The position numbers and the translations under genes were made by a program. Below are positions 917-46,128 of a stretch of DNA of 64,000 nt, in pieces. Origin of the DNA: Candidatus Parabacteroides intestinigallinarum (GTDB lineage: Bacteria > Bacteroidota > Bacteroidia > Bacteroidales > Tannerellaceae); the NCBI GenBank assembly GCA_019114945.1, contig DXEN01000072.1, forward strand, positions 1-64,000, read 5' to 3'. The notes under the pieces are model-generated. The model ran no database searches, was not told where the DNA came from, and was given only the letters and a program-made list of their open reading frames with translations. The stretch's first letter is position 1. The number at the start of each line of letters is the position of its first letter.

Positions 917-2740
917 ATGAAAACGTTGTTATTTATTGGCAATTTTGGAAGCGGGGAAATCATGCTTATTGCGTTGATTCTTATTATTCCGTTGTTTTTA
1001 ATATTATGGAGTGCCGGGGCCTTTACTACATTCCCTCCAGATCCGCAAACATTAGACACCTCGGAATGGAAGCCGAGAGCAAATAAAATATGGGGTGGAT
1101 TTATACTTTATCTTTTGTCTGGGGCGATTGGTTCCATATTCGAGTTGGCGGATAAAATAAACGACCTTCGTTCGATGCTCTCATCTTTGTCTTCTTCTTC
1201 ATCCGAGGATTTTATGGAAGCATGGTTGAGCAGCAATATAGATATTTTAAGTGGTACGACGGTGGCTAACATTTTGGTCGTTATCGGATTTGTAATCTAT
1301 TACACGGGGCTGAAAAGTTTCGCTGAAATTCAAAAAGATGATTTCACGGCGGAGAACATTTTAAAGATACGCAGAGCGGCGATTTGTGGCGTAATTGCTT
1401 TGCTACTCGGTTATATTCCGTTCATCGGGGGTTTTGGCGGATGGATTTTAAATCTTGTGATGTATTTCATGCTTGCATCCGCATATGGTTATTTGCGATA
1501 TAGCCCGGTATTTAATATTCGGGCGAAAGCGGGAGCTCGCTTGCTTCGTTCGGCAGCCATCATGTATATCATCGGCATGTTTATTCCCATTATCGGAGGA
1601 TTGTTCAGTTTCATGGGGCTTTTAATGACTATCATAGGTTGGGGACGAATACGTAAAGGTGGACCGATCGCGGCAGTTGCATCGGTAGCGACGAATATTA
1701 CATATAACTATTATACGAGTTCAGTGCCGACCGAGACTCTTTCCTCGCCCAATCCTGCTACTCCCACTTCTGGAGAAAGGCCTAAATTTTGTCCGCATTG
1801 TGGAGCGCCTTGTAAAGAATATCAAAGATATTGTCCGAATTGCGGATTCGAGCTTGATAAAAAACCGGAAGAACCGGTTATGCCGATAGTTGAAAAAAAA
1901 GAGCCACCCGCGACAAAAGTAGAACCGGTTAGAACACCGCCTGAGCCTTCAACGGCTGACACTACCTCAAAAGAGGCACCTTCGAAGCAGGAGAAAAATC
2001 AGCGAGACAAAAGTAACAAACAGGCGTTAGTGTTAATCAGTGGAGTAGTGATTTTTCTAATTATAGGACTTTGTGTCTATAATTTTTGGTACAAACCTTA
2101 TGCGACAGATCGAGATGCCCTGCGTTACTACACCTTTACGAATTTGAATCTTCGATCATCTGAAAATGCGGAATTGAAAGATAACATAATAGAGATGCTT
2201 CCTTATGGAACAGAATTAATCACTTACGGAAAAGGATATTCCTGGGCAAGAGTAAAAGCGAACGGCAAGGAAGGGCATGTAGCCGCTCATTTGATTTTGA
2301 GCAAAGAGGATTTTCAGCTATTAGACGGCGTATGGGGTAATGAAGAAGCTAAAAAATGCGTGGGATCCGCTCATTATCGATTGGCGGTAATAGATTATTT
2401 GAAGCGCAATGAGTTTTTTTCTGGCGCAAGGGAGTGGCAAATTTTCTCGAAACCATACGGAAGCGCGCAGAATACGATTGCCTATCCAAACCTGTCACAG
2501 GAGGAAAACGGAGATGGACTGATATTCATAGTGAAAAATAATCGAACAAATGAACGTAAATTGGTGATCTATGGTTTTACTACAACGGAACCTAAATCTC
2601 CAGTATTTAAAACAGACTTTCGTTTAGAAAAAGATTTAAGTATCCAGAAAGCAGTATGTCGTTTAGATAAATATGATAATCTTTGGATTAGGGTGACATT
2701 CAATGATGGAAGCTATAAAACATTTAGAGTTTACATGTGA
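917..2740 (+). CDS. multi-pass membrane protein with zinc ribbon and SH3-like domain
   Basis: This 607-aa protein has about five to six hydrophobic segments in residues 17-245. A zinc ribbon follows at residues 292-314 (FCPHCGAPC then YCPNCGFEL, two CxxC pairs). Next come a Pro/Glu/Lys-rich linker, one more membrane span near residues 370-392, and a bacterial SH3-like domain at about 400-460 (NLNLRSSENAEL, GHVAAHLIL). The last 140 residues are not recognised. The zinc ribbon should be cytoplasmic and the SH3-like part periplasmic, where such domains often bind peptidoglycan. An in-frame ATG at 962 would start directly at the first membrane segment and is a plausible alternative start. Function is unknown; a stress- or envelope-sensing role is only a guess. 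Confidence 0.8.
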   Translation: MKTLLFIGNFGSGEIMLIALILIIPLFLILWSAGAFTTFPPDPQTLDTSEWKPRANKIWGGFILYLLSGAIGSIFELADKINDLRSMLSSLSSSSSEDFMEAWLSSNIDILSGTTVANILVVIGFVIYYTGLKSFAEIQKDDFTAENILKIRRAAICGVIALLLGYIPFIGGFGGWILNLVMYFMLASAYGYLRYSPVFNIRAKAGARLLRSAAIMYIIGMFIPIIGGLFSFMGLLMTIIGWGRIRKGGPIAAVASVATNITYNYYTSSVPTETLSSPNPATPTSGERPKFCPHCGAPCKEYQRYCPNCGFELDKKPEEPVMPIVEKKEPPATKVEPVRTPPEPSTADTTSKEAPSKQEKNQRDKSNKQALVLISGVVIFLIIGLCVYNFWYKPYATDRDALRYYTFTNLNLRSSENAELKDNIIEMLPYGTELITYGKGYSWARVKANGKEGHVAAHLILSKEDFQLLDGVWGNEEAKKCVGSAHYRLAVIDYLKRNEFFSGAREWQIFSKPYGSAQNTIAYPNLSQEENGDGLIFIVKNNRTNERKLVIYGFTTTEPKSPVFKTDFRLEKDLSIQKAVCRLDKYDNLWIRVTFNDGSYKTFRVYM

Positions 2741-2783
2741 ATGAGTAGATGTCTGCCCCAACCAATGCTTTAAGACGCGAAAA

Positions 2784-2871
2784 AGTCACGTAGGTGCGAT
2801 GCCTCACGCACGTATGTTAAAATGCCAACGCACCTATGTGACTTCGCCAACACACCTATGTATCCTTTGGA
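2784..2871. repeat. intergenic tandem array, four 22-bp units
   Basis: Units begin at 2784, 2806, 2828 and 2850, exactly 22 bp apart, and share the core ACGCAC(C/G)TATGTG followed by a variable hexamer and CGCCA. The first unit is inverted relative to the third, so AAGTCACGTAGGTGCG (2783-2798) pairs with 2829-2844 with a single mismatch, giving a strong hairpin that may also end transcription of the upstream gene. A 35-bp stretch (2806-2840) recurs perfectly at 59786-59820. Confidence 0.8.
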
Positions 2872-2973: not shown

Positions 2974-4794
2974 ATGAAACAGCTAAATTATCCATCCATG
3001 AGATTTCTGAGAATGGCCGGGCTAAGTCTGGCAATGGGTCTCGCGACGCTCGCGAGCGCGCAAGAGACGAGTTACGACGTGCGCCATCTGGCCAACGAGC
3101 AAAACATCGTCTCGCTCAGCGCCTCGAAAAAATACCTCCTCCTACCGGTAGAGGATAACGCGCCCGAGGGGAAAGTGTACATCATCGTAGACAACAATCG
3201 CCAGGGCGAGGAGATCAACATCCGCCTGGCCCGCAAGCAGGTGGATTATTATGTCCCGCTCGACCTCTCCGCGTTCGCCGGGAAAGCGGTCGCGATCGAC
3301 ATCCAGGGAACGCCCTCGTCCGCTATCTGCTGGAAAAAGCTCCAGTTCTCCGATACGTTCGACCTAACCAACCGGGAGAAGTTCCGACCCGTTTACCACC
3401 ATACACCCGCCTACGGCTGGATGAACGACCCGAACGGTATGTTCTACAAGGATGGCGTCTACCATCTGTATTTCCAGCACAACCCGTATGGCTCCACATG
3501 GGGCAATATGACGTGGGGGCACTCTACCAGTAGCGACCTAATCCACTGGAATTTTGAGGGCGACGCCATCCTGCCCGACGCCTGGGGCGCCATCTTCAGC
3601 GGCTCGTGCGTGGTAGACCACGAGAATACGGCGGGCTTCGGAGCGGGAGCCGTGGTGGCCTTCTACACCTCGGCAAAATCGACACCGTGGGGCGGCAGCC
3701 AATCGCAAAGCCTGGCGTATAGCCTCGACAACGGAAAGACATTCATCAAATACGACAAGAACCCCATCCTGACTTCCGACCAACCGGACTTCCGCGACCC
3801 GAAAGTCTTCTGGTACGCGCCGGACAAGCATTGGGTGATGATGCTCGCCGTCGGGCAGGAGATGCAAATCTTCTCCTCCAAGAACCTCAAGGATTGGAAA
3901 TACGAGAGCAGTTTCGGTGCCAAGCAAGGGGCGCACGGAGGCGTGTGGGAATGCCCGGATTTGGTGGAACTGCCCGTAGAGGGGACAAAAGAGAAGAAGT
4001 GGGTACTGATTTGCAACATCAACCCGGGCGGACCCTTCGGCGGTAGCGCGACACAATATTTCGTGGGAACCTTCAACGGGAAACGCTTCGTGAACGAGGC
4101 GCCCACGCAAACCAAATGGATGGATTGGGGCAAGGACAACTACGCCACCGTGACGTGGAACAACGCGCCGGACGGGCGTTGCGTGGCCTTGGGGTGGATG
4201 AGCAACTGGCAATACCAAGCCGTACTGCCCACGTGGCAATACAGAGGGGCGAACACCGTGGCCCGCGATTTTACGCTCTATAAAAAGGACGGGGAATATC
4301 TGCTGAAATCGGCGCCTTCTCCCGAGATGAAACAGGCACGCGGGGAGAAACAAAGCTTCCCGTCGTTCAAGGTGAGCGACACCTACCAAATCAATCAACT
4401 ATTGCCGCGGAACGAGGGAGCTTACGAGATTGAGCTAAGCATCAAGAACGCCGGAGCCTCGCGCGTCATCCTGAACCTCCTCAACGAAAAGGGCGAGCGA
4501 ATCGATATGTATTACGACGTGCCCCGCCAGCAATTCGTGATGGACCGGAGCGAGAGCGGCTTGACCAGTTTCAGCAAAGAGTTCCCCGCCGTAACCGTGG
4601 CTCCCGCCAGCGAGACGGATCGCATCCAACTGCGGTTGTTCATCGACCGGTCGAGCATCGAGGTCTTTGGCGAGGAAGGCGAGTACGTGATGACCAACCG
4701 CATCTTCCCTTCCGCGCCATACAACCAAATGTCGTTCGCCTCGGATCGGGGCAGCTTCACGGTAGAATCGTTGAACGTATATAAAATCAAATAA
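2974..4794 (+). CDS. glycoside hydrolase family 32 fructanase/levanase-type enzyme
   Basis: This enzyme hydrolyses beta-fructosides (sucrose, levan or inulin) by retaining catalysis. A signal peptide spans about residues 1-29 (LATLASAQ), and a Met at residue 9 gives a tidier version of it. A small beta-rich domain is followed by the five-blade propeller with all three family signatures: WMNDPNG (nucleophile Asp152), FRDPK (Asp275) and WECPD (acid/base Glu326). The C-terminal beta-sandwich contains RLFIDRSSIEVFGE, typical of GH32. Length 606 aa is normal for the family. No lipobox is seen, so it is probably periplasmic. The sugar importer starts 3 nt after its stop and the fructokinase follows, so released fructose is imported and phosphorylated. 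Endo or exo action and exact substrate cannot be told from sequence. Confidence 0.95.
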   Translation: MKQLNYPSMRFLRMAGLSLAMGLATLASAQETSYDVRHLANEQNIVSLSASKKYLLLPVEDNAPEGKVYIIVDNNRQGEEINIRLARKQVDYYVPLDLSAFAGKAVAIDIQGTPSSAICWKKLQFSDTFDLTNREKFRPVYHHTPAYGWMNDPNGMFYKDGVYHLYFQHNPYGSTWGNMTWGHSTSSDLIHWNFEGDAILPDAWGAIFSGSCVVDHENTAGFGAGAVVAFYTSAKSTPWGGSQSQSLAYSLDNGKTFIKYDKNPILTSDQPDFRDPKVFWYAPDKHWVMMLAVGQEMQIFSSKNLKDWKYESSFGAKQGAHGGVWECPDLVELPVEGTKEKKWVLICNINPGGPFGGSATQYFVGTFNGKRFVNEAPTQTKWMDWGKDNYATVTWNNAPDGRCVALGWMSNWQYQAVLPTWQYRGANTVARDFTLYKKDGEYLLKSAPSPEMKQARGEKQSFPSFKVSDTYQINQLLPRNEGAYEIELSIKNAGASRVILNLLNEKGERIDMYYDVPRQQFVMDRSESGLTSFSKEFPAVTVAPASETDRIQLRLFIDRSSIEVFGEEGEYVMTNRIFPSAPYNQMSFASDRGSFTVESLNVYKIK

Positions 4795-4797
4795 TCC

Positions 4798-5961
4798 ATG
4801 GAAAAGCAAATGAAGTACGGGCAAATCATCCCGGTCATGTTATGTTTCTTCGCGATGGGATTCGTCGACCTCGTAGGCATCGCCTCCAATTACGTGAAGG
4901 CCGATCTCGGCTTGAGCGACGCCGAGGCGAATATCTTTCCCTCGCTGGTATTCTTCTGGTTCCTGATCTTCTCCGTCCCGACGGGAATCCTGATGAATCG
5001 CATCGGGCGACGCAAGACGGTCTTACTAAGCCTTGTCGTCACCTTCGCCTCGTTGGTGCTCCCTATTTTTGGCGATAGCTACGGGCTGATGCTTGCCTCG
5101 TTCTCGCTCTTAGGTATCGGCAACGCCTTGATGCAAACCTCGCTGAACCCGCTCCTGAGCAATATCATCGCGGGCGACAAGCTGGCGAGCACGCTTACGT
5201 TCGGACAATTCGTGAAAGCTATCGCCTCGTTCCTCGCCCCGTACATCGCCATGTGGGGAGCGATGGAGAGCCTGCCGACCTTCGGCTTGGGCTGGCGGGT
5301 GCTTTTCCCGATTTATATGGCCATCGCCGTGATCGCCATCCTCTGGCTGGGCGCTACAACGATCGAGGAGGAACGGCCGGATAAGGCTTCCGGCTTCGCG
5401 GCTTGCTTCTCGTTGCTGGGAAAACCGTTCATCCTATTATCATTCATCGGCATCATGTGCCATGTAGGTATCGACGTGGGGACAAACACCACCGCCCCGA
5501 AAATCTTGATGGAACGGCTGAACATGCCCTTGGCGGACGCGGGCTTCGCCACGAGCCTCTATTTCATCTTCCGTACGTTGGGCTGCCTGTCCGGCGCGTT
5601 TATCCTGCAAAAAGCCTCGTCGAAATCATTCTTCGCGCTGAGCGTGGCGATGATGCTGGCGGCGATGGTCGGCTTGTTCCTATTCGATAGCAAGACCGCC
5701 ATCTATATCTGCATCGCACTGATCGGCTACGGCAACTCCAACGTATTCTCCATCGTCTTCTCGCAAGCCTTGTTGGCGCTGCCCGACAAGAAAAACGAGG
5801 TATCGGGACTGATGATCATGGGCCTTTTCGGCGGAACGATCTTCCCCTTGGCGATGGGATTGGCCAGCGACGCGATGGGACAAAACGGCGCCGTAGCGGT
5901 CATGGCCTTGGGCGTCCTTTATCTTTTAACGTATACATTTAAAATCAAACGTGAATCATGA
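4798..5961 (+). CDS. MFS sugar importer of the FucP/fructose-glucose type
   Basis: This 387-aa inner-membrane protein with about twelve hydrophobic segments belongs to the major facilitator superfamily. The loop 2-3 signature is visible as GILMNRIGRRKT. The N-terminus (GQIIPVMLCFFAMGFVDLVG) and the internal LMQTSLNPLLSNI resemble the FucP-like sugar:proton symporters of Bacteroidetes. It starts 3 nt after the GH32 gene, and its stop overlaps the start of the fructokinase, so all three are probably one transcript. Transport of fructose, or possibly sucrose or short fructo-oligosaccharides, is inferred from these neighbours. Confidence 0.9.
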   Translation: MEKQMKYGQIIPVMLCFFAMGFVDLVGIASNYVKADLGLSDAEANIFPSLVFFWFLIFSVPTGILMNRIGRRKTVLLSLVVTFASLVLPIFGDSYGLMLASFSLLGIGNALMQTSLNPLLSNIIAGDKLASTLTFGQFVKAIASFLAPYIAMWGAMESLPTFGLGWRVLFPIYMAIAVIAILWLGATTIEEERPDKASGFAACFSLLGKPFILLSFIGIMCHVGIDVGTNTTAPKILMERLNMPLADAGFATSLYFIFRTLGCLSGAFILQKASSKSFFALSVAMMLAAMVGLFLFDSKTAIYICIALIGYGNSNVFSIVFSQALLALPDKKNEVSGLMIMGLFGGTIFPLAMGLASDAMGQNGAVAVMALGVLYLLTYTFKIKRES

Positions 5962-6839
5962 ATAATCACATCATCGTAGGAATGGGCGAGGCACTGTGGG
6001 ACGTGCTGCCCGAAGGAAAGAAAATAGGCGGGGCTCCTGCCAATTTCGCCTATCATATCTCCCAGTTCGGATTGAACAGCCGTGTCGTAAGCGCGGTAGG
6101 AGACGATAAGTTGGGAAACGAGATCTTGGAGAACTTCGCGGAAAAGAAGCTGAACTGCCAGATCGAGAAAGTGCCCTACCCGACCGGCACGGTACAAGTG
6201 ACGTTGGACGAAGCCGGCGTTCCTCGCTACGACATCAAAGAAGGCGTAGCCTGGGACAACATCCCTTTCACGCCGGCATTGGAGCGGTTGGCGAAACAGA
6301 CCCAGGCGGTTTGCTTCGGCTCGCTGGCGCAACGGAGCGTGGTATCGCGCGAGACCATCAACCGCTTTCTCGACACCATGCCCGACGGCGAGGGACAATA
6401 CAAGATATTCGACATCAACCTGCGGCAGAACTTCTACACCAAGGAGATCATCTGCGAGTCGATGCGGAAATGCAACATCCTGAAGATTAACGACGAGGAA
6501 TTGGTTACCATCAGCCGCATGTTTGAATGGCCGGGCATCGACCTGGAAGACAAATGCTGGATTCTGCTGGCGAAGTATGGATTGAAGATGCTGATCCTGA
6601 CCTGTGGCGTAAACGGCAGCTACGTTTTCACGCCGGGCGATATTTCTTTCGTGGATACGCCGAAAGTAGAAGTGGCGGACACCGTGGGCGCGGGCGACTC
6701 GTTTACCGCCTCGTTCGTCGCGGCGATCCTGAAAGGGAAAAGCGTGGCCGACGCGCATCGCTTGGCCGTGAAGGTATCCGCTTTTGTCTGCACGCAGAAT
6801 GGGGCGATGCCGGAATTACCGAAAGAATTCATTCAATAA
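5958..6839 (+). CDS. fructokinase, PfkB/ribokinase family
   Basis: This 293-aa sugar kinase probably makes fructose 6-phosphate from fructose and ATP. The N-terminal PfkB signature GGAPANFAYHISQFG is at about residues 24-38. The C-terminal signature DTVGAGDSFTASF includes the catalytic Asp in GAGD and the anion hole. Its ATGA start overlaps the transporter stop, indicating translational coupling. It closes a minimal hydrolase-importer-kinase route into glycolysis. Other PfkB sugars cannot be excluded from sequence alone, but the GH32 context strongly favours fructose. Confidence 0.92.
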   Translation: MNNHIIVGMGEALWDVLPEGKKIGGAPANFAYHISQFGLNSRVVSAVGDDKLGNEILENFAEKKLNCQIEKVPYPTGTVQVTLDEAGVPRYDIKEGVAWDNIPFTPALERLAKQTQAVCFGSLAQRSVVSRETINRFLDTMPDGEGQYKIFDINLRQNFYTKEIICESMRKCNILKINDEELVTISRMFEWPGIDLEDKCWILLAKYGLKMLILTCGVNGSYVFTPGDISFVDTPKVEVADTVGAGDSFTASFVAAILKGKSVADAHRLAVKVSAFVCTQNGAMPELPKEFIQ

Positions 6840-41230: not shown

Positions 41231-42298
41231 TTACAATCCGATTGTCTCATACTGGATGCGTCTCGCCCACGAGAGGGCGCTTATCTCCACGTTCACGTAC
41301 TCCCACGTGTCGCCCCGCAGGAAGAAGACCAACTGGAACTCGTGCCCGCGGTCGAGGAACTCCTGTGGCGAGTAGCGGTAGATGTCCGCCGCCGTGCGCA
41401 GGCGGCTCAGGATGTCGGGCAGGTCGACACGCGCCACCTCCACGCCGGTACGCCGGTTGGTGATGGACAGGATGGCGTCGTCCTCCGCCCGGTCGTGATA
41501 GATGAGCCGCGACGTCATGAAGTCGGCGTGCGCCATGCGGCCCACCCCGGTCGCGCCCTCCACGGGCCGGTCGTCGGTGTTACGTGTGGCGTAAGGCGTA
41601 TAGACCAGCGTATCGGCGTCGGTGGACTCGTCGACCGAGTTGTCCCACAACAGGTGGGCGTTACGCGCGTAGATACGGAAATCGTAATCGTCCACGTCGA
41701 TCCGCGTCGGGTCGTCGATCTCGCGGAGCGTGACGCTAATCTCCTTCGTGTTCCGCGTGAGCGACACCGTGTCGCGCGTGATCCGGTCGAGCACCACTTC
41801 CACGGGCTCGGTACGCATGCCGTGCCAGAGCGTATCGAGCGGCATGCCGCCGTGGGTCACGTAGCCCGCCGCGTCGTACTCCAACGTGTGCGTCACGGCG
41901 GAAAGGCTGTCGCCCGCCGCGGGCTCGGTACGGATAAACGCGGCGCCATCATCCAAGGAAAAAGTAGTTAACTCGTCGTAATCGCACTGGAAGGCGGAGA
42001 CCAGGTATTGGTAACGTCCGGGCGGCAGGTCGAAATGCATCTCGTAGCCATCGGCCGCCAGCGCGTCGCCGTGTTCCGACCGCGACGTCAGGAACGAGCC
42101 GTTCTCGTCGAACAAGTAGACCGTCACGTCGCCCACGTGGTCGGCGAACATATCCGCCCGCTGCAAATTATAATCGTACTCGAACGTCAGGCGCAACCCG
42201 CTGGGGCATGGCTCCAAATCGTCGTGTATATACTCGCACGAGGCCATCGCCGCGAGGGCCAGGAGCGCCCAACATGCTATGCTACTTTGTCTGTTCAT
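41231..42298 (-). CDS. Mfa2/FimB-family fimbrial anchor lipoprotein
   Basis: This 355-aa lipoprotein has the lipobox LAAMASC (residue 21) directly followed by EYIHDDLEPCPSGLRL, the hallmark start of FimB/Mfa2 proteins, which anchor and limit the length of Mfa fimbriae in the outer membrane. VGDVTVYLFDENGSFL and LPPGRYQYLVSAFQ are strands of the first transthyretin-like domain. It would normally follow the major-subunit gene directly, but two toxin-antitoxin cassettes and their repeats (about 2 kb) now lie in between. Confidence 0.88.
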   Translation of the reverse strand: MNRQSSIACWALLALAAMASCEYIHDDLEPCPSGLRLTFEYDYNLQRADMFADHVGDVTVYLFDENGSFLTSRSEHGDALAADGYEMHFDLPPGRYQYLVSAFQCDYDELTTFSLDDGAAFIRTEPAAGDSLSAVTHTLEYDAAGYVTHGGMPLDTLWHGMRTEPVEVVLDRITRDTVSLTRNTKEISVTLREIDDPTRIDVDDYDFRIYARNAHLLWDNSVDESTDADTLVYTPYATRNTDDRPVEGATGVGRMAHADFMTSRLIYHDRAEDDAILSITNRRTGVEVARVDLPDILSRLRTAADIYRYSPQEFLDRGHEFQLVFFLRGDTWEYVNVEISALSWARRIQYETIGL

Positions 42299-42360
42299 CT
42301 ATCACTGTCTTTTACTACATATCTTCCGTAGCCCTTCGACAGATAGGAACAACGATTCAA

Positions 42361-42422
42361 TTGACAATGGACAATTAAATTGACAATGGACAATGGACGA
42401 TTGACAATTAGCCTTGGCCTCT
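42361..42422. repeat. 62-bp direct repeat, copy 1
   Basis: This is an AT-rich block of overlapping TTGACAAT(G/T)G motifs ending in GCCTTGGCCTCT. It is identical to 43107-43168 and 44084-44145. It lies between the Mfa2-like gene and the first toxin gene and is followed by an oppositely oriented AATTGTCAATT stretch at 42439-42470. Confidence 0.9.
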
Positions 42423-42450
42423 GCCGTTTCCCGCTAATAATTGTCAATTG

Positions 42451-42765
42451 TCAATCGTTAATTATCAATTGGTTCGGGTCACGGCGAGTGTCCCAGAAGT
42501 CCACCCCATAGACAATCCTATTGGCTTCATCCACTCGATAAATCAATTTAAAATGAGGCTGTATGCATAAAGAACGATACTCGTATCGCCTATCCTTCAA
42601 CAAGAGTTCCAGCGGAGCCATATAAGGAAATAGCTCTAACAAACTCGCGGTCTGTATAACATTCTTATAAAAACGTCTTGCCACATTCGTGCCAAACTCC
42701 CGCTCCGCATAAAGCATATTCTCTTTCAAGGCGCGCTTCACTTTCTCGGTTAGAAAAAGCTTCAT
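42451..42765 (-). CDS. RelE/ParE-family toxin, cassette 1
   Basis: This 104-aa toxin (start MKLFLTEKVKRALKEN) has the family fold signature RRFYKNVIQTASLLELFPY, YEYRSLCIQPHFKLIYRVDE and the final VDFWDTRRDPNQL. RelE/ParE toxins cleave mRNA on ribosomes or poison gyrase. The ORF track starts at 42816, but the ATG at 42765 overlaps the antitoxin stop as ATGA, so the pair is coupled. The last codons (IIND) come from the AATTG repeat beyond the gene. The 40 bp covering the end of the gene are identical to those of cassette 2. Confidence 0.85.
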   Translation of the reverse strand: MKLFLTEKVKRALKENMLYAEREFGTNVARRFYKNVIQTASLLELFPYMAPLELLLKDRRYEYRSLCIQPHFKLIYRVDEANRIVYGVDFWDTRRDPNQLIIND

Positions 42766-43052
42766 GATACCAGCCATGGGAAATCTCGTTCTAATTCTTG
42801 CTTCAAGTCTTCCCAAGCTATCACCTTACCGGCGGCGATATCAGCCTCAGCTACTAAAATACGAGCCTCTAATTCCTCTTGTGTATAAGGAATGGGATAA
42901 GCCGTGAAATCCTTCGCGTGACTTTCATCAGCGATCCTCCTCCATCGCTTATACTCGTCAGAATAAATAGGAAGTGCCGCCTTCGGCGTACGCTCGTAGG
43001 CTACCTCGGGTTCGCTGAGGCGGTTGTCGGTCTTGTTGTCGTCTGCTTCCAT
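42762..43052 (-). CDS. putative antitoxin, cassette 1
   Basis: This is a 96-aa acidic protein. Its first 25 residues (including NRLSEPEVAYERTPKA) are almost identical to those of the second antitoxin, while the remainder (YPIPYTQEELEARILVAEAD, AWEDLKQELERDFPWLVS) is different. The C-terminal helix with WEDLKQELE is what would wrap the toxin. No classical DNA-binding domain is recognised. Antitoxin function is inferred from order, overlap and the RelE/ParE partner. Confidence 0.78.
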   Translation of the reverse strand: MEADDNKTDNRLSEPEVAYERTPKAALPIYSDEYKRWRRIADESHAKDFTAYPIPYTQEELEARILVAEADIAAGKVIAWEDLKQELERDFPWLVS

Positions 43053-43074
43053 CGCGATTGTTATTTGGTATGCG

Positions 43075-43082
43075 CGAAGATA
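43075..43082 (-). promoter_or_regulatory. minus-7 promoter element, cassette 1
   Basis: On the minus strand TATCTTCG matches TAnnTTTG at seven of eight positions, 22 bp before the antitoxin ATG. The upstream part of the promoter is formed by the TTGACAATT repeat. Confidence 0.5.
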
Positions 43083-43106
43083 ACGTTTCTAATTGACAAT
43101 TGATAA

Positions 43107-43168
43107 TTGACAATGGACAATTAAATTGACAATGGACAATGGACGATTGACAATTAGCCTTGGCCTCT
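43107..43168. repeat. 62-bp direct repeat, copy 2
   Basis: This is identical to copies 1 and 3. Here it continues into a 190-bp duplicated block (42979-43168) that also covers the promoter and the first 25 antitoxin codons of cassette 1. Confidence 0.9.
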
Positions 43169-43204
43169 ACCGTTTCCCGCTAATAATTAGTGGATGTGTC
43201 TAAT

Positions 43205-43314
43205 CGCGGAAAAGCACACAGATGACACAGATCGAACGGATGAACGCAGATCGTTTTTATTGATTTATAATTAAATAAATCCGTGCAAATCCGCGCCCTC
43301 CGCGTCTGCGTGCC
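43205..43314. repeat. gene-less dispersed-repeat remnant between the two cassettes
   Basis: The segment holds GCACACAGATGACACAGATC at one end and an imperfect inverted counterpart (CCGCGTCTGCGTGCC) at the other, with an AT-rich centre. I recall this style of sequence as the flank of GxxExxY-protein genes in Bacteroidetes and other phyla, but no such gene is present here. The 312-bp gap 43053-43364 contains only this, the copy-2 repeat and an AATTGTCAATT stretch. Confidence 0.5.
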
Positions 43315-43364
43315 AATACTTGATTTTGACATACCTTCTTTTCCCCGCGAATAATTGTCAATTG

Positions 43365-43691
43365 TTAATCGTCAATTGTCAATTTAGTCGTCAATTGGTT
43401 CGGGTCACGGCGAGTGTCCCAGAAGTCCACCACGTGAAGCTCCACCCGCGGTTCGTCAACGAAATAGATTAACTTGAAATGAGGGCGGACCCGTAATGAC
43501 CGGTAACGGTACTTCTTTCCACTAAGAAAGCTCTCTTCCGAGCCCAAATATGGAAAATCAATAAGATACCTCACATCCGAAAGAACCCCCTCATAGAAAC
43601 GCGAAGCCACTCGCTCTCCAAATCGCATTTTACACCATTGATAGTTTAAGCGTATCCGCTTTCGCGCCTCCGCATGTATCACTAACCGCAT
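43365..43691 (-). CDS. RelE/ParE-family toxin, cassette 2
   Basis: This 108-aa toxin (start MRLVIHAEARKRIRLN) is homologous to the cassette 1 toxin but diverged in the core (YQWCKMRFGERVASRFYEGV against RFYKNVIQTA). It shares YRYRSLRVRPHFKLIYFVDE and the identical VDFWDTRRDPNQL. The last residues TTKLTIDD are read from the AATTG repeat. The listed ORF begins at 43751; the ATG at 43691 overlaps the antitoxin end by 10 nt and gives the normal family length. Confidence 0.85.
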   Translation of the reverse strand: MRLVIHAEARKRIRLNYQWCKMRFGERVASRFYEGVLSDVRYLIDFPYLGSEESFLSGKKYRYRSLRVRPHFKLIYFVDEPRVELHVVDFWDTRRDPNQLTTKLTIDD

Positions 43692-44029
43692 GGATAACGA
43701 TGTTTTAACTCCGGAAACTCCTTTTCCATCTCCTCTTGAAACTTCTCCCAAGTAATCCCGGAATCGCGCCCGGCATCAATCTCCCCTTGAATCCATTCAA
43801 TCCGTTGCCGCGCCTCACGCTTTGTCAAAGGCCTTGGATGCTCTAAGGTATCCAAGCGCTCCCGCAAATCCGGCATCTCCGCATAAAAACACGGATGCTC
43901 TCTACGAATAATATCCATCATCTCGTTCACCGTCTTACGGGAGTGAGACACGCTTGCCTTCGGCGTACGCTCGTAGGCTACCTCGGGCTCGCTGAGGCGG
44001 TTGTCGGTCTTGTTGTCGTCTGATTCCAT
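43682..44029 (-). CDS. putative antitoxin, cassette 2
   Basis: This 115-aa protein has the same N-terminal 25 residues as antitoxin 1 (one change visible) and then a different body (KTVNEMMDIIRREHPCFYAE, REARQRIEWIQGEIDAG, GITWEKFQEEMEKEFPEL). Both antitoxins end in a similar WExxxxExEkeFP helix. It precedes its toxin with a 10-nt overlap. Constant N-terminus and variable body suggest that the cores have been exchanged by recombination. Confidence 0.78.
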   Translation of the reverse strand: MESDDNKTDNRLSEPEVAYERTPKASVSHSRKTVNEMMDIIRREHPCFYAEMPDLRERLDTLEHPRPLTKREARQRIEWIQGEIDAGRDSGITWEKFQEEMEKEFPELKHRYPCG

Positions 44030-44051
44030 CGCGATTGTTGTTTGGTATGCG

Positions 44052-44059
44052 CGAAGATA
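44052..44059 (-). promoter_or_regulatory. minus-7 promoter element, cassette 2
   Basis: On the minus strand TATCTTCG lies 22 bp before the antitoxin ATG, at the same place as in cassette 1, inside the duplicated 190-bp block. Confidence 0.5.
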
Positions 44060-44083
44060 ATATTTCTAATTGACAATTGATAA

Positions 44084-44145
44084 TTGACAATGGACAATTA
44101 AATTGACAATGGACAATGGACGATTGACAATTAGCCTTGGCCTCT
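44084..44145. repeat. 62-bp direct repeat, copy 3
   Basis: This is identical to copies 1 and 2. It is followed by an inverted AATTGTCAATT stretch (44162-44193) that is not followed by a cassette but by the end of the Mfa1-like gene region. Confidence 0.9.
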
Positions 44146-44253
44146 ATGTTTCCTCGCGAATAATTGTCAATTGTCAATTCTCAATTGTCAATTGGTTCGT
44201 TGTTCCAATCTGTCAAAGAGCGTCGTCCGTTCCCCTTGGGGGTCCGGCTGAGT

Positions 44254-44313: not shown

Positions 44314-46128
44314 TTACAGCTCTACGTCTTGCGTACGTTTAGCCCAAGCGAGGATACGAATCTCTGCCTTTACGTAACCCGTTTCCTCGTCATCCGGCGT
44401 ATCCGGCGTATCCGGGATTTCCGGCTCGCCCGGGCTGGTTATCTTCGTAATATGCAACTCGTACCAGTTGTTGCGAACCACGCCGTAACGTCCCAGATGT
44501 TTCTCTTCCGTATAATTATACGGATCGCCATCGGTAGCCTCAGTCCAAGGAGTATAGTCATCCCCGAAGTGCTCGATGCGGCTTACGTGATAGAACACTT
44601 GCGCGTCCTTATAATACTTCACGGAACCAAACTCGCTTAAGATGGTTTGCAGATTGGCAGCGTCATCCTGAGCATCCATACCTAACAGCGTAGCCAAGCC
44701 TTCCACCGTATCGTAAGTACCGCCGTTCACTCCCGCCGCCGGTTTCCAGCCATCAGCCAAGAAAGAAGGAGACCCGCCAATCTTATCATTTACCTGCTTA
44801 ATAAAATTAGCTATTGTATAAGTATGGCCAGGCTCATCCTTACCCATAACGAAGAAGCTCGGATCCTCCGCGTCCACGTTCGAGTTCGTCGACGCTCCCT
44901 CAGCACCAGTTTCTTGCGTGAAAAAATACTGTCCAGTCAACACGATGCGAGTGGTCTGCGCCTCCTTCATATTGGCGGCATCGAAGGTGTTCTCGAAGCA
45001 ATAAAGGGGGTTGTCGCTGCCTATCTTCTTCTCCCACTCGATATCAGAGGCGGAAGTCACATCGGCGATGTAATTGAACTCTTGACTGTAGCGGGTATCT
45101 GTCGGCGTGTTGGGATTCGCCGTTCCATAGTTCGACCCATCATAGTTGCCATCCACAGACCAATAGATACGATACGGCTCCGTGTCTGCCACGAAGCGGC
45201 TATTCCCACCTCCTGAATTGATATTTGGATTATAATGACCGAACCACGTGCTATACGGCGTTACATCGTGCAGCAGCTTGGTAGACTTGTTCGTTACGTC
45301 CAGCGTCCAGCCTTCCAGCACGGCGTATCCCGAATAACCCTGCGGCAGGCCGGTTATATCCTTCCGAAGCTCACCGTTCTCCTCAGCATCAAATCCCGTC
45401 AGCGTCACTTTCGCCATGACGCGCTCCAAGTGAATCACCGTAGCGGAGTTCTGATTGGCTTCCGCCTCGGTCTCGTAAATCGTTATCGGCTGCAAAATCT
45501 CTACCTTCGCGCTATTGTCCGAGCTGATAACCGCCTTGGTAGCCAACGGGGCGTTGAGCATCGTGAAGCCATCGTTACCCGTATAATCAGCGATATCTTG
45601 ATCCTCCAGCTTCGTACGCAAGTCCGCCAACTTCAGGGCAGTAGTCCCTTCAGCATCATACGTCGTACCAGCGATTGTCAACGAATGCGTATTGTTGTTC
45701 ATGGATATGACATTGCTATGCCCGTTCAATATCACCAAGGCGTAAACCGGGTTCGTATTGTTCTTTAACAGCGGGGCTTGCGCCGTCAGGGTCTGCGTCG
45801 CCGTAATAGCGTCAGTATGAGTCTCATCTTGATTCCAAGTTCCCGGCAGGTTATAAGCGCCCACGAAAACAGCGTTCTCCTCGCTCACGCCACTGAAGTA
45901 GGCTATGATTCCGCTCTTTACCGTCCACTCGCTATCCAAGCCGTCATCGAAACTATCGTTCGCGGCGCGCGTACCCGTGGTAGAAGGCAAAGAAATCGTC
46001 ACCTTCGCGTACCCTGTCGCGCCTTCCACCACGTTAGGGCCATCCTGCCCGCCTTCCAGGTCGTCGCTACAGCCGGCGAGGAGCATACCTGCCGCCAGCA
46101 TACTGAATACATAAAATCTCTTTTTCAT
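44314..46128 (-). CDS. Mfa1-family major fimbrial subunit
   Basis: This 604-aa lipoprotein has the lipobox LLAGC at residue 20 (followed by SDDLEGG). TGTRAAND near residue 55 looks like the Arg maturation site that frees the N-terminal strand for donor-strand exchange. KVTISLPS, SGIIAYFSG and VIHLERVMAKVTLTGF fit the first Mfa-like domain. The C-terminus (NNWYELHITKITSPGEPEIP, VKAEIRILAWAKRTQDVEL) is the standard final strand. It is the first pilin gene after the DUF3868 gene and is therefore the likely shaft subunit. Confidence 0.88.
   Translation of the reverse strand: MKKRFYVFSMLAAGMLLAGCSDDLEGGQDGPNVVEGATGYAKVTISLPSTTGTRAANDSFDDGLDSEWTVKSGIIAYFSGVSEENAVFVGAYNLPGTWNQDETHTDAITATQTLTAQAPLLKNNTNPVYALVILNGHSNVISMNNNTHSLTIAGTTYDAEGTTALKLADLRTKLEDQDIADYTGNDGFTMLNAPLATKAVISSDNSAKVEILQPITIYETEAEANQNSATVIHLERVMAKVTLTGFDAEENGELRKDITGLPQGYSGYAVLEGWTLDVTNKSTKLLHDVTPYSTWFGHYNPNINSGGGNSRFVADTEPYRIYWSVDGNYDGSNYGTANPNTPTDTRYSQEFNYIADVTSASDIEWEKKIGSDNPLYCFENTFDAANMKEAQTTRIVLTGQYFFTQETGAEGASTNSNVDAEDPSFFVMGKDEPGHTYTIANFIKQVNDKIGGSPSFLADGWKPAAGVNGGTYDTVEGLATLLGMDAQDDAANLQTILSEFGSVKYYKDAQVFYHVSRIEHFGDDYTPWTEATDGDPYNYTEEKHLGRYGVVRNNWYELHITKITSPGEPEIPDTPDTPDDEETGYVKAEIRILAWAKRTQDVEL

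What the first reader, a model, noticed from the sequence alone, without database searches (positions are those of the whole stretch)
42451..44145. Two tandem toxin-antitoxin cassettes with constant ends and variable cores
The block 42979-43168 (repeat, promoter, first 25 antitoxin codons) equals 43956-44145 with 5 substitutions in 190 bp and no gaps. At the other end, 42466-42505 equals 43392-43431 over all 40 bp (toxin C-terminus). Between them the antitoxin bodies and toxin N-termini are clearly different. Conserved borders around diverged cores look like a cassette system in which homologous recombination swaps toxin-antitoxin cores while keeping promoter and end regions. The constant antitoxin N-terminus may be a shared docking or degradation segment.
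Basis: partly seen in the sequence, partly recalled or inferred. Interest (0 to 1): 0.8.

Follow-up and report, generated by a model that had tools for sequence, protein, structure and literature searches.

The report
Toxin-antitoxin array with swapped cores
Between two pilus genes of a gut bacterium (genus Parabacteroides) sit two neighbouring poison-antidote gene pairs whose front ends are nearly identical while their middles are old and different, and two related species carry other such arrays at the same spot, which suggests that recombination keeps the ends uniform while the specificity parts diverge and are reshuffled.

Summary
The genes are two ParE-type toxin-antitoxin pairs, encoded on the minus strand, in a Parabacteroides genome. 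They lie between a major fimbrilin gene and its Mfa2/FimB-like anchor gene. The same interval holds other arrays in two of 38 other genomes of the genus: four antitoxins and two toxins in one, and one intact antitoxin plus decayed cassettes in the other. It holds none at three further fimbrial loci. Within a genome the antitoxin 5' ends are 96-100% identical (85% in the decayed array). Between genomes they are only 59-70% identical. Cores behave the other way: antitoxin 2 is closer to one core in each other species (55% and 51%) than to its neighbour (38%). One cassette is a mosaic, and cassette order differs. This contradicts a simple recent tandem duplication and supports recombination that keeps ends uniform around older, reshuffled cores. 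Import of cores from other strains is not shown. The palindromic repeat in the block is a genome-wide intergenic element, not a cassette border. The constant N-terminus is predicted disordered. Function was not tested.

The parts
43682..44029 (-). Antitoxin A2 (115 aa); codons 1-25 constant, remainder variable core
   Evidence: ORF; no Pfam or NCBIfam family above cut-off; core closest to G037_A4 43/78 and G028_A1 35/69
43365..43691 (-). Toxin T2 (108 aa), ParE family, overlaps the end of A2
   Evidence: Pfam ParE_toxin 4.3e-6; predicted beta-alpha-alpha-beta-beta-beta-alpha fold, pLDDT 83.9; Foldseek to PaaA2-ParE2 5czf TM 0.87 (target-normalised) and other ParDE complexes
42762..43052 (-). 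Antitoxin A1 (96 aa); codons 1-25 nearly identical to A2 (one amino-acid difference), core different
   Evidence: ORF; 5' end 72/75 bp identical to A2, core 18/47 aa
42451..42765 (-). Toxin T1 (104 aa), ParE family, overlaps the end of A1
   Evidence: Pfam ParE_toxin 5.3e-7
42979..43168 (.). Constant 5' block of cassette 1: half repeat, leader, first 25 antitoxin codons
   Evidence: 185/190 identical to 43956-44145
43956..44145 (.). Constant 5' block of cassette 2
   Evidence: 185/190 identical to 42979-43168
42465..42505 (-). Constant 3' end of toxin T1 (VDFWDTRRDPNQL)
   Evidence: 41-bp exact match to 43391-43431
43391..43431 (-). Constant 3' end of toxin T2
   Evidence: 41-bp exact match to 42465-42505
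42359..42442 (.). Palindromic AATTGACAATTG repeat after T1 (member of a genome-wide intergenic family)
   Evidence: 83/84 identical to 43105-43188; family at some 60 other places in the genome; 42345-42480 folds at -40 kcal/mol
43105..43188 (.). Palindromic repeat between T2 and A1; its other arm (43352-43397) is split off by about 150 bp of other sequence
   Evidence: repeat scan, pair I3
44082..44165 (.). Palindromic repeat before A2
   Evidence: 78/84 identical to 43105-43188; 44060-44200 folds at -44 kcal/mol
44196..44221 (-). Left arm of the inverted repeat that brackets the whole array (TTTGACAGATTGGAACAACGAA)
   Evidence: only two places in the genome within 3 mismatches, these two
42331..42356 (+). 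Right arm of the bracketing inverted repeat
   Evidence: arms in G037 and G028 pair with each other but have a different sequence
44314..46128 (-). Major fimbrilin-like gene upstream of the array (604 aa)
   Evidence: ORF; same position and similar proteins in G037 and G028
41231..42298 (-). Mfa2/FimB-like fimbrial anchor gene downstream of the array (355 aa)
   Evidence: ORF; six homologous loci in the genus, three with arrays, three without

Best explanation
This is an array of ParE-type type II toxin-antitoxin cassettes at a variable site inside a fimbrial operon. Homologous recombination between the cassettes keeps the leader plus the antitoxin N-terminus, and to a lesser degree the toxin C-terminus, uniform within one genome. 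The cores (antitoxin toxin-binding part plus toxin body) are older paralogues that are kept, reordered, recombined or lost. Shown here: the identities, their genome-private nature, shared core types in three species, a mosaic cassette, orphan antitoxins, decayed cassettes and empty sites. Inferred: that RecA-type gene conversion or unequal crossing over is the mechanism. Inferred: that each antitoxin neutralises its own toxin through the variable C-terminal part, that orphan antitoxins still neutralise toxins of relatives, and that the constant leader and disordered N-terminus serve shared expression or turnover.
For: 5' ends 96-100% identical at DNA level within G000 and within G037 (85% in G028), but 59-70% between genomes, while core DNA is 53-69% in all comparisons. 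Core A2 matches G037_A4 (43/78 aa) and G028_A1 (35/69) better than its neighbour A1 (18/47); toxin T2 matches G037_T4 (37/78) best. Exact-match tracts at the toxin 3' end are 41 bp within G000 and 23 bp within G037, against 14 bp between genomes. Tract ends differ between pairs (sequence). The G028 cassette follows G037 cassette 4 for most of the antitoxin and then cassette 3 for the antitoxin C-terminus and first part of the toxin, max-descent p = 0.0017. A G028 second cassette keeps both constant ends but has lost its core. Core types alpha and beta are in opposite order in G037 and G028. Empty sites. Two further tandem toxin-antitoxin pairs elsewhere in the genus also share leader plus N-terminus (G038 135/154 bp, G009). 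Toxin family.
Against: Only three genomes carry the array, at least two of them metagenome assemblies, and no strain series was available. The mosaic p-value is for one triplet chosen after looking. The 40-bp 3' match lies in a motif (DFWDTRRDP) that protein constraint already conserves across species. Neither toxicity nor neutralisation was tested.
Confidence: 0.7

Rival explanations
1. Core import: incoming DNA from relatives' arrays recombines at the constant leader/N-terminus and at the conserved toxin C-terminus or beyond, replacing or adding a core and leaving older antitoxins as orphans, as proposed for type VI secretion immunity arrays in Vibrio cholerae.
For: Shared core types across species in different order, orphan antitoxins A1 and A2 in G037, mosaic G028 cassette; the published model uses conserved upstream anchors and leaves old immunity genes behind (PMC5361080).
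Against: The constant ends are private to each genome at 59-70% between species, so between-species import would need recombination across strongly diverged ends. No donor locus was found in plasmids, phages or viral contigs. Strain-level data are missing.
Confidence: 0.4
2. Ordinary recent tandem duplication of one cassette followed by fast divergence of the cores under diversifying selection.
For: Tandem arrangement, and the nearly identical repeats around the cassettes fit a duplication.
Against: Cores of A2 and T2 are closer to genes of other species than to A1 and T1, although the 5' ends are 96% identical. Core DNA identity is at background level while the flanking noncoding DNA is 97% identical.
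Confidence: 0.08
3. Selection, not recombination: the antitoxin N-terminus and leader must match one shared operator or partner in the cell, so all copies in a genome are held the same.
For: An EPxxxY motif recurs in antitoxin N-termini at other loci, and leader plus N-terminus are kept together in tandem pairs elsewhere in the genus.
Against: Identity extends over synonymous and noncoding positions (67-69 of 69 bp in four G037 copies). In G037 the exact identity begins at or just before the start codon (sequence), so the leader is not shared there. Selection may add to recombination but does not by itself give DNA identity.
Confidence: 0.15
4. Integron-like cassette array in which the palindromic repeats act as recombination sites.
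For: Each cassette lies between palindromic repeats.
Against: The repeat is a genome-wide intergenic element also found after unrelated genes, it is absent between the G037 cassettes, and no protein in the genome passes the integron integrase cut-off.
Confidence: 0.03

Closest known systems
ParDE and PaaA2-ParE2 type II toxin-antitoxin systems
   Same: Antitoxin gene before and overlapping a ParE-fold toxin; sequence and fold matches to ParE. As for PaaA2, no DNA-binding domain was detected in the antitoxin; PaaA2 is reported to lack DNA-binding motifs (PMC8630535).
   Different: Antitoxin matches no described family; several cassettes in tandem with homogenised 5' ends, orphan antitoxins, and no separate regulator gene between the fimbrial genes.
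Type VI secretion effector-immunity arrays of Vibrio cholerae (sequential displacement model)
   Same: Constant upstream anchor, variable downstream specificity parts, arrays with orphan immunity genes, mosaic structure (PMC5361080).
   Different: Here intracellular toxin-antitoxin pairs without a secretion cluster; every unit keeps its own copy of the constant 5' end.
Modular, partner-swapping antitoxins (Panacea domain and the NetFlax network)
   Same: Antitoxins as linear modules in which neutralising parts are exchanged (PMC10440598).
   Different: There swapping is over deep evolutionary time between unrelated families; here near-identical DNA ends around diverged cores inside one array.

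Membership tests
Type II ParDE-like toxin-antitoxin system | Toxin of the ParE/RelE fold family | tested here: met
   Pfam PF05016 above cut-off for T1 and T2; predicted fold matches ParE complexes with TM 0.8-0.87 normalised by target
Type II ParDE-like toxin-antitoxin system | Small antitoxin gene directly upstream and co-oriented or overlapping | tested here: met
   A1/T1 overlap by 4 bp, A2/T2 by 10 bp
Type II ParDE-like toxin-antitoxin system | Antitoxin with ribbon-helix-helix DNA-binding N-terminus (ParD) | tested here: not met
   No Pfam or NCBIfam match; residues 1-29 predicted disordered, pLDDT below 50 (shallow alignment). It is therefore filed as ParE-type with an undescribed antitoxin, not as ParDE proper
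Type II ParDE-like toxin-antitoxin system | Toxin inhibits growth and is neutralised by its antitoxin | not testable with these tools
   Needs expression assays
Effector-immunity style displacement array | Orphan immunity genes next to complete pairs at one locus, differing between genomes | tested here: met
   G037: antitoxins A1 and A2 without toxins, then two pairs; G028: one antitoxin with decayed toxin and a core-less remnant
Effector-immunity style displacement array | Orphan genes most similar to intact pairs in other strains of the species | not testable with these tools
   Only one genome per species could be searched
Integron cassette array | Integron integrase | tested here: not met
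   No match over the TIGR02249 cut-off; weak matches are general tyrosine recombinases, as in all control genomes
Integron cassette array | Cassette-specific palindromic recombination site between units | tested here: not met
   The repeat is genome-wide and intergenic and absent between the G037 cassettes

The most novel reading that the evidence does not exclude
A locus-bound, diversity-generating toxin-antitoxin array: cassettes enter and leave a site between two fimbrial genes, bracketed by an inverted repeat whose two arms change together from species to species. Recombination through the shared leader and N-terminus exchanges toxin specificities between strains, and orphan antitoxins are retained as protection against toxins of relatives.
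Probability: 0.25. Interest if true: 0.75.

Novelty: new variant of a known kind. Interest (0 to 1): 0.55.

Why it matters
Partner swapping between toxins and antitoxins is well documented over deep time, but how it happens in DNA is rarely visible. Here the ends are kept uniform while the specificity parts are old and shared across species, so the process can be caught and tested directly in strains. If core exchange is confirmed, it would link simple intracellular toxin-antitoxin genes to the array logic known from contact-dependent and type VI weapons. It would also give a ready set of matched and mismatched pairs for specificity assays.

Tried and rejected
Searches of plasmids (A2), phages (T2) and viral contigs (A2) for relatives gave nothing useful. 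The order-wide profile search found array-type antitoxins only in the own genome at E <= 1e-8 (an even sample of 393 genomes that did not include G028 or G037 among those listed). Rfam gave no match in the region. The palindromic repeat as a cassette recombination site was rejected because it is genome-wide and follows unrelated genes, including a second fimbrial operon. An integron was rejected. The bracketing inverted repeat as a genome-wide mobile element was rejected because only these two arms occur in the genome. Literature searches for concerted evolution, gene conversion or arrays of type II toxin-antitoxin genes found no prior description; the library is open-access papers only. The profile of all eight antitoxins was too diverse for a named-genome scan, so the fimbrial anchor protein was used instead.

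Full report
Observation. The two blocks are as described: 42979-43168 and 43956-44145 differ at 5 of 190 positions without gaps, and 42466-42505 equals 43392-43431 over 40 bp, 41 with one flanking base. At offset 977, identity drops from about 29/30 to about 10/30 within one or two 30-bp windows at each edge. The own genome (2.98 Mb, 95 contigs) holds no other copy of the antitoxin part of the block. About half of the block is a palindromic AATTGACAATTG repeat found at some 60 other places, so only the leader and the first 25 antitoxin codons are specific.

What the genes are. All four ORFs run on the minus strand. Both toxins match Pfam ParE_toxin above its cut-off. A profile of the toxins finds ParE chains in the PDB. 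The model of T2 (pLDDT 83.9) has the beta-alpha-alpha-beta-beta-beta-alpha order of this fold and matches ParE complexes, with PaaA2-ParE2 (5czf) at TM 0.87 normalised by the target. The antitoxins match no curated family. The model of A2 has residues 1-29 below pLDDT 50 and helices afterwards. The alignment behind it is shallow, so this is only suggestive of a disordered constant end and a helical variable core.

Place. The array lies between a major fimbrilin-like gene (44314-46128) and an Mfa2/FimB-like anchor gene (41231-42298). In the genus, six loci carry a close relative of that anchor protein. Three carry arrays (the window, G037 contig 39, G028 contig 25). Three are empty: G026, which appears to be the same record as L082; G014; and a second locus of G037. 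Names come from matching contigs: G037 corresponds to an uncultured Parabacteroides, isolate T19_L4 bin.154, and G028 to isolate BRZ_ER bin5. Fimbrial gene names rest on recall of the characteristic lipoprotein sequence and gene order, not on a family search.

Relatives. G037 has four antitoxin genes, all beginning METKDENNKVSEPELAYGQRRKT; the first two lack a toxin and the last two have one. G028 has one antitoxin beginning MDEEKNNRLGEPEMVYERR followed by a toxin gene with a premature stop. After that comes a remnant that keeps the constant start and the toxin's last codons but has lost the core. The remnant's short core stretch resembles that of the first G037 antitoxin (11 of 15 residues). 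A profile of the array-type antitoxins finds no further genome in 393 sampled from the order at E <= 1e-8.

Ends against cores. The first 22-25 codons are 96% identical at DNA level between A1 and A2, 97-100% among the four G037 copies and 85% in G028, but only 59-70% between genomes. Core DNA is 53-69% everywhere. At protein level core A2 is closest to G037_A4 (43/78) and G028_A1 (35/69), and clearly less like A1 (18/47). T2 is closest to G037_T4 (37/78), and T1 to the decayed G028 toxin (37/71). So the ends group by genome and the cores group by type across genomes. A recent duplication with fast divergence does not predict this. Exact tracts beyond chance end at different places in different pairs: about codon 25 in the window, 23 for most G037 pairs and 36 for G037 A3/A4. 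That fits repeated homologous recombination better than a fixed-site mechanism; this step is inference.

Mosaic and order. At sites that distinguish G037 cassettes 3 and 4, the G028 antitoxin matches cassette 4 up to its last part. It then matches cassette 3 in the antitoxin C-terminus and the first part of the toxin (max-descent p = 0.0017). This is one triplet, chosen after inspection. It suggests that the antitoxin C-terminus travels with its toxin. The two core types shared by G037 and G028 are in opposite order in the two arrays.

Wider pattern. Of 72 loci fetched around ParE-type toxins in the genus, seven non-array antitoxins have an EPxxxY motif near the N-terminus; many others begin with an unrelated MTxMEL-type segment. 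Two further tandem pairs, in G038 and G009, share leader plus N-terminus around different cores. In G038 it is 135 of 154 bp from -71 to +83. Keeping leader and N-terminus together is therefore not unique to the fimbrial site.

Unexplained. In all three arrays the outer borders form an inverted repeat of about 20-35 bp whose arms pair within a genome but differ between genomes. In the own genome these two arms are the only places within three mismatches. It could be a relic of insertion, an RNA stem or an inversion site; nothing here decides.

Judgement. Best explanation: an array of ParE-type cassettes whose ends are homogenised by recombination while older cores are kept, reordered and lost (0.7). 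Active exchange of cores between strains is plausible but not shown (0.4, overlapping with the first). Simple duplication is unlikely (0.08). As a system it is a new variant of a known kind: type II toxin-antitoxin genes organised like effector-immunity arrays (PMC5361080). No prior description was found in the open-access library. At least two of the three array genomes are metagenome assemblies, so assembly error cannot be excluded for the decayed copies.

Noticed in passing
window 42331-42356 and 44196-44221; L045 and L049 at the array borders: An inverted repeat brackets the whole array in three species; its arms match each other within a species but differ between species.
   Followed up: partly
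window 42359-42442, 43105-43188, 44082-44165 and about 60 other places in the genome: A palindromic AATTGACAATTG repeat family sits in intergenic regions and folds into long hairpins; it matches no Rfam family.
   Followed up: partly
window about 43190-43340: A roughly 150-bp stretch (CACAGATGACACAGATCG... to CCGCGTCTGCG) splits the palindromic repeat between T2 and A1 and looks like an inserted repeat; a similar motif (GCGGATGACACGGATTT) precedes both antitoxin starts in G028.
   Followed up: no
L129 (G038), antitoxins 3203-3433(-) and 2480-2824(-): Another tandem toxin-antitoxin pair with shared leader and N-terminus (135/154 bp) and different cores, next to a mobile-element-like region.
   Followed up: partly
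L045 (G037) 5938-6150: The first orphan antitoxin runs at its C-terminus into a GC-rich palindromic repeat (CCCCCTCTGCCCTGAAGGGCATCTCCCCC), which may have removed its toxin.
   Followed up: no
L203 (G000 contig 10, 29500-38686): A second fimbrial operon of the same genome has the palindromic repeat, but no toxin-antitoxin genes, between its fimbrilin and anchor genes.
   Followed up: partly
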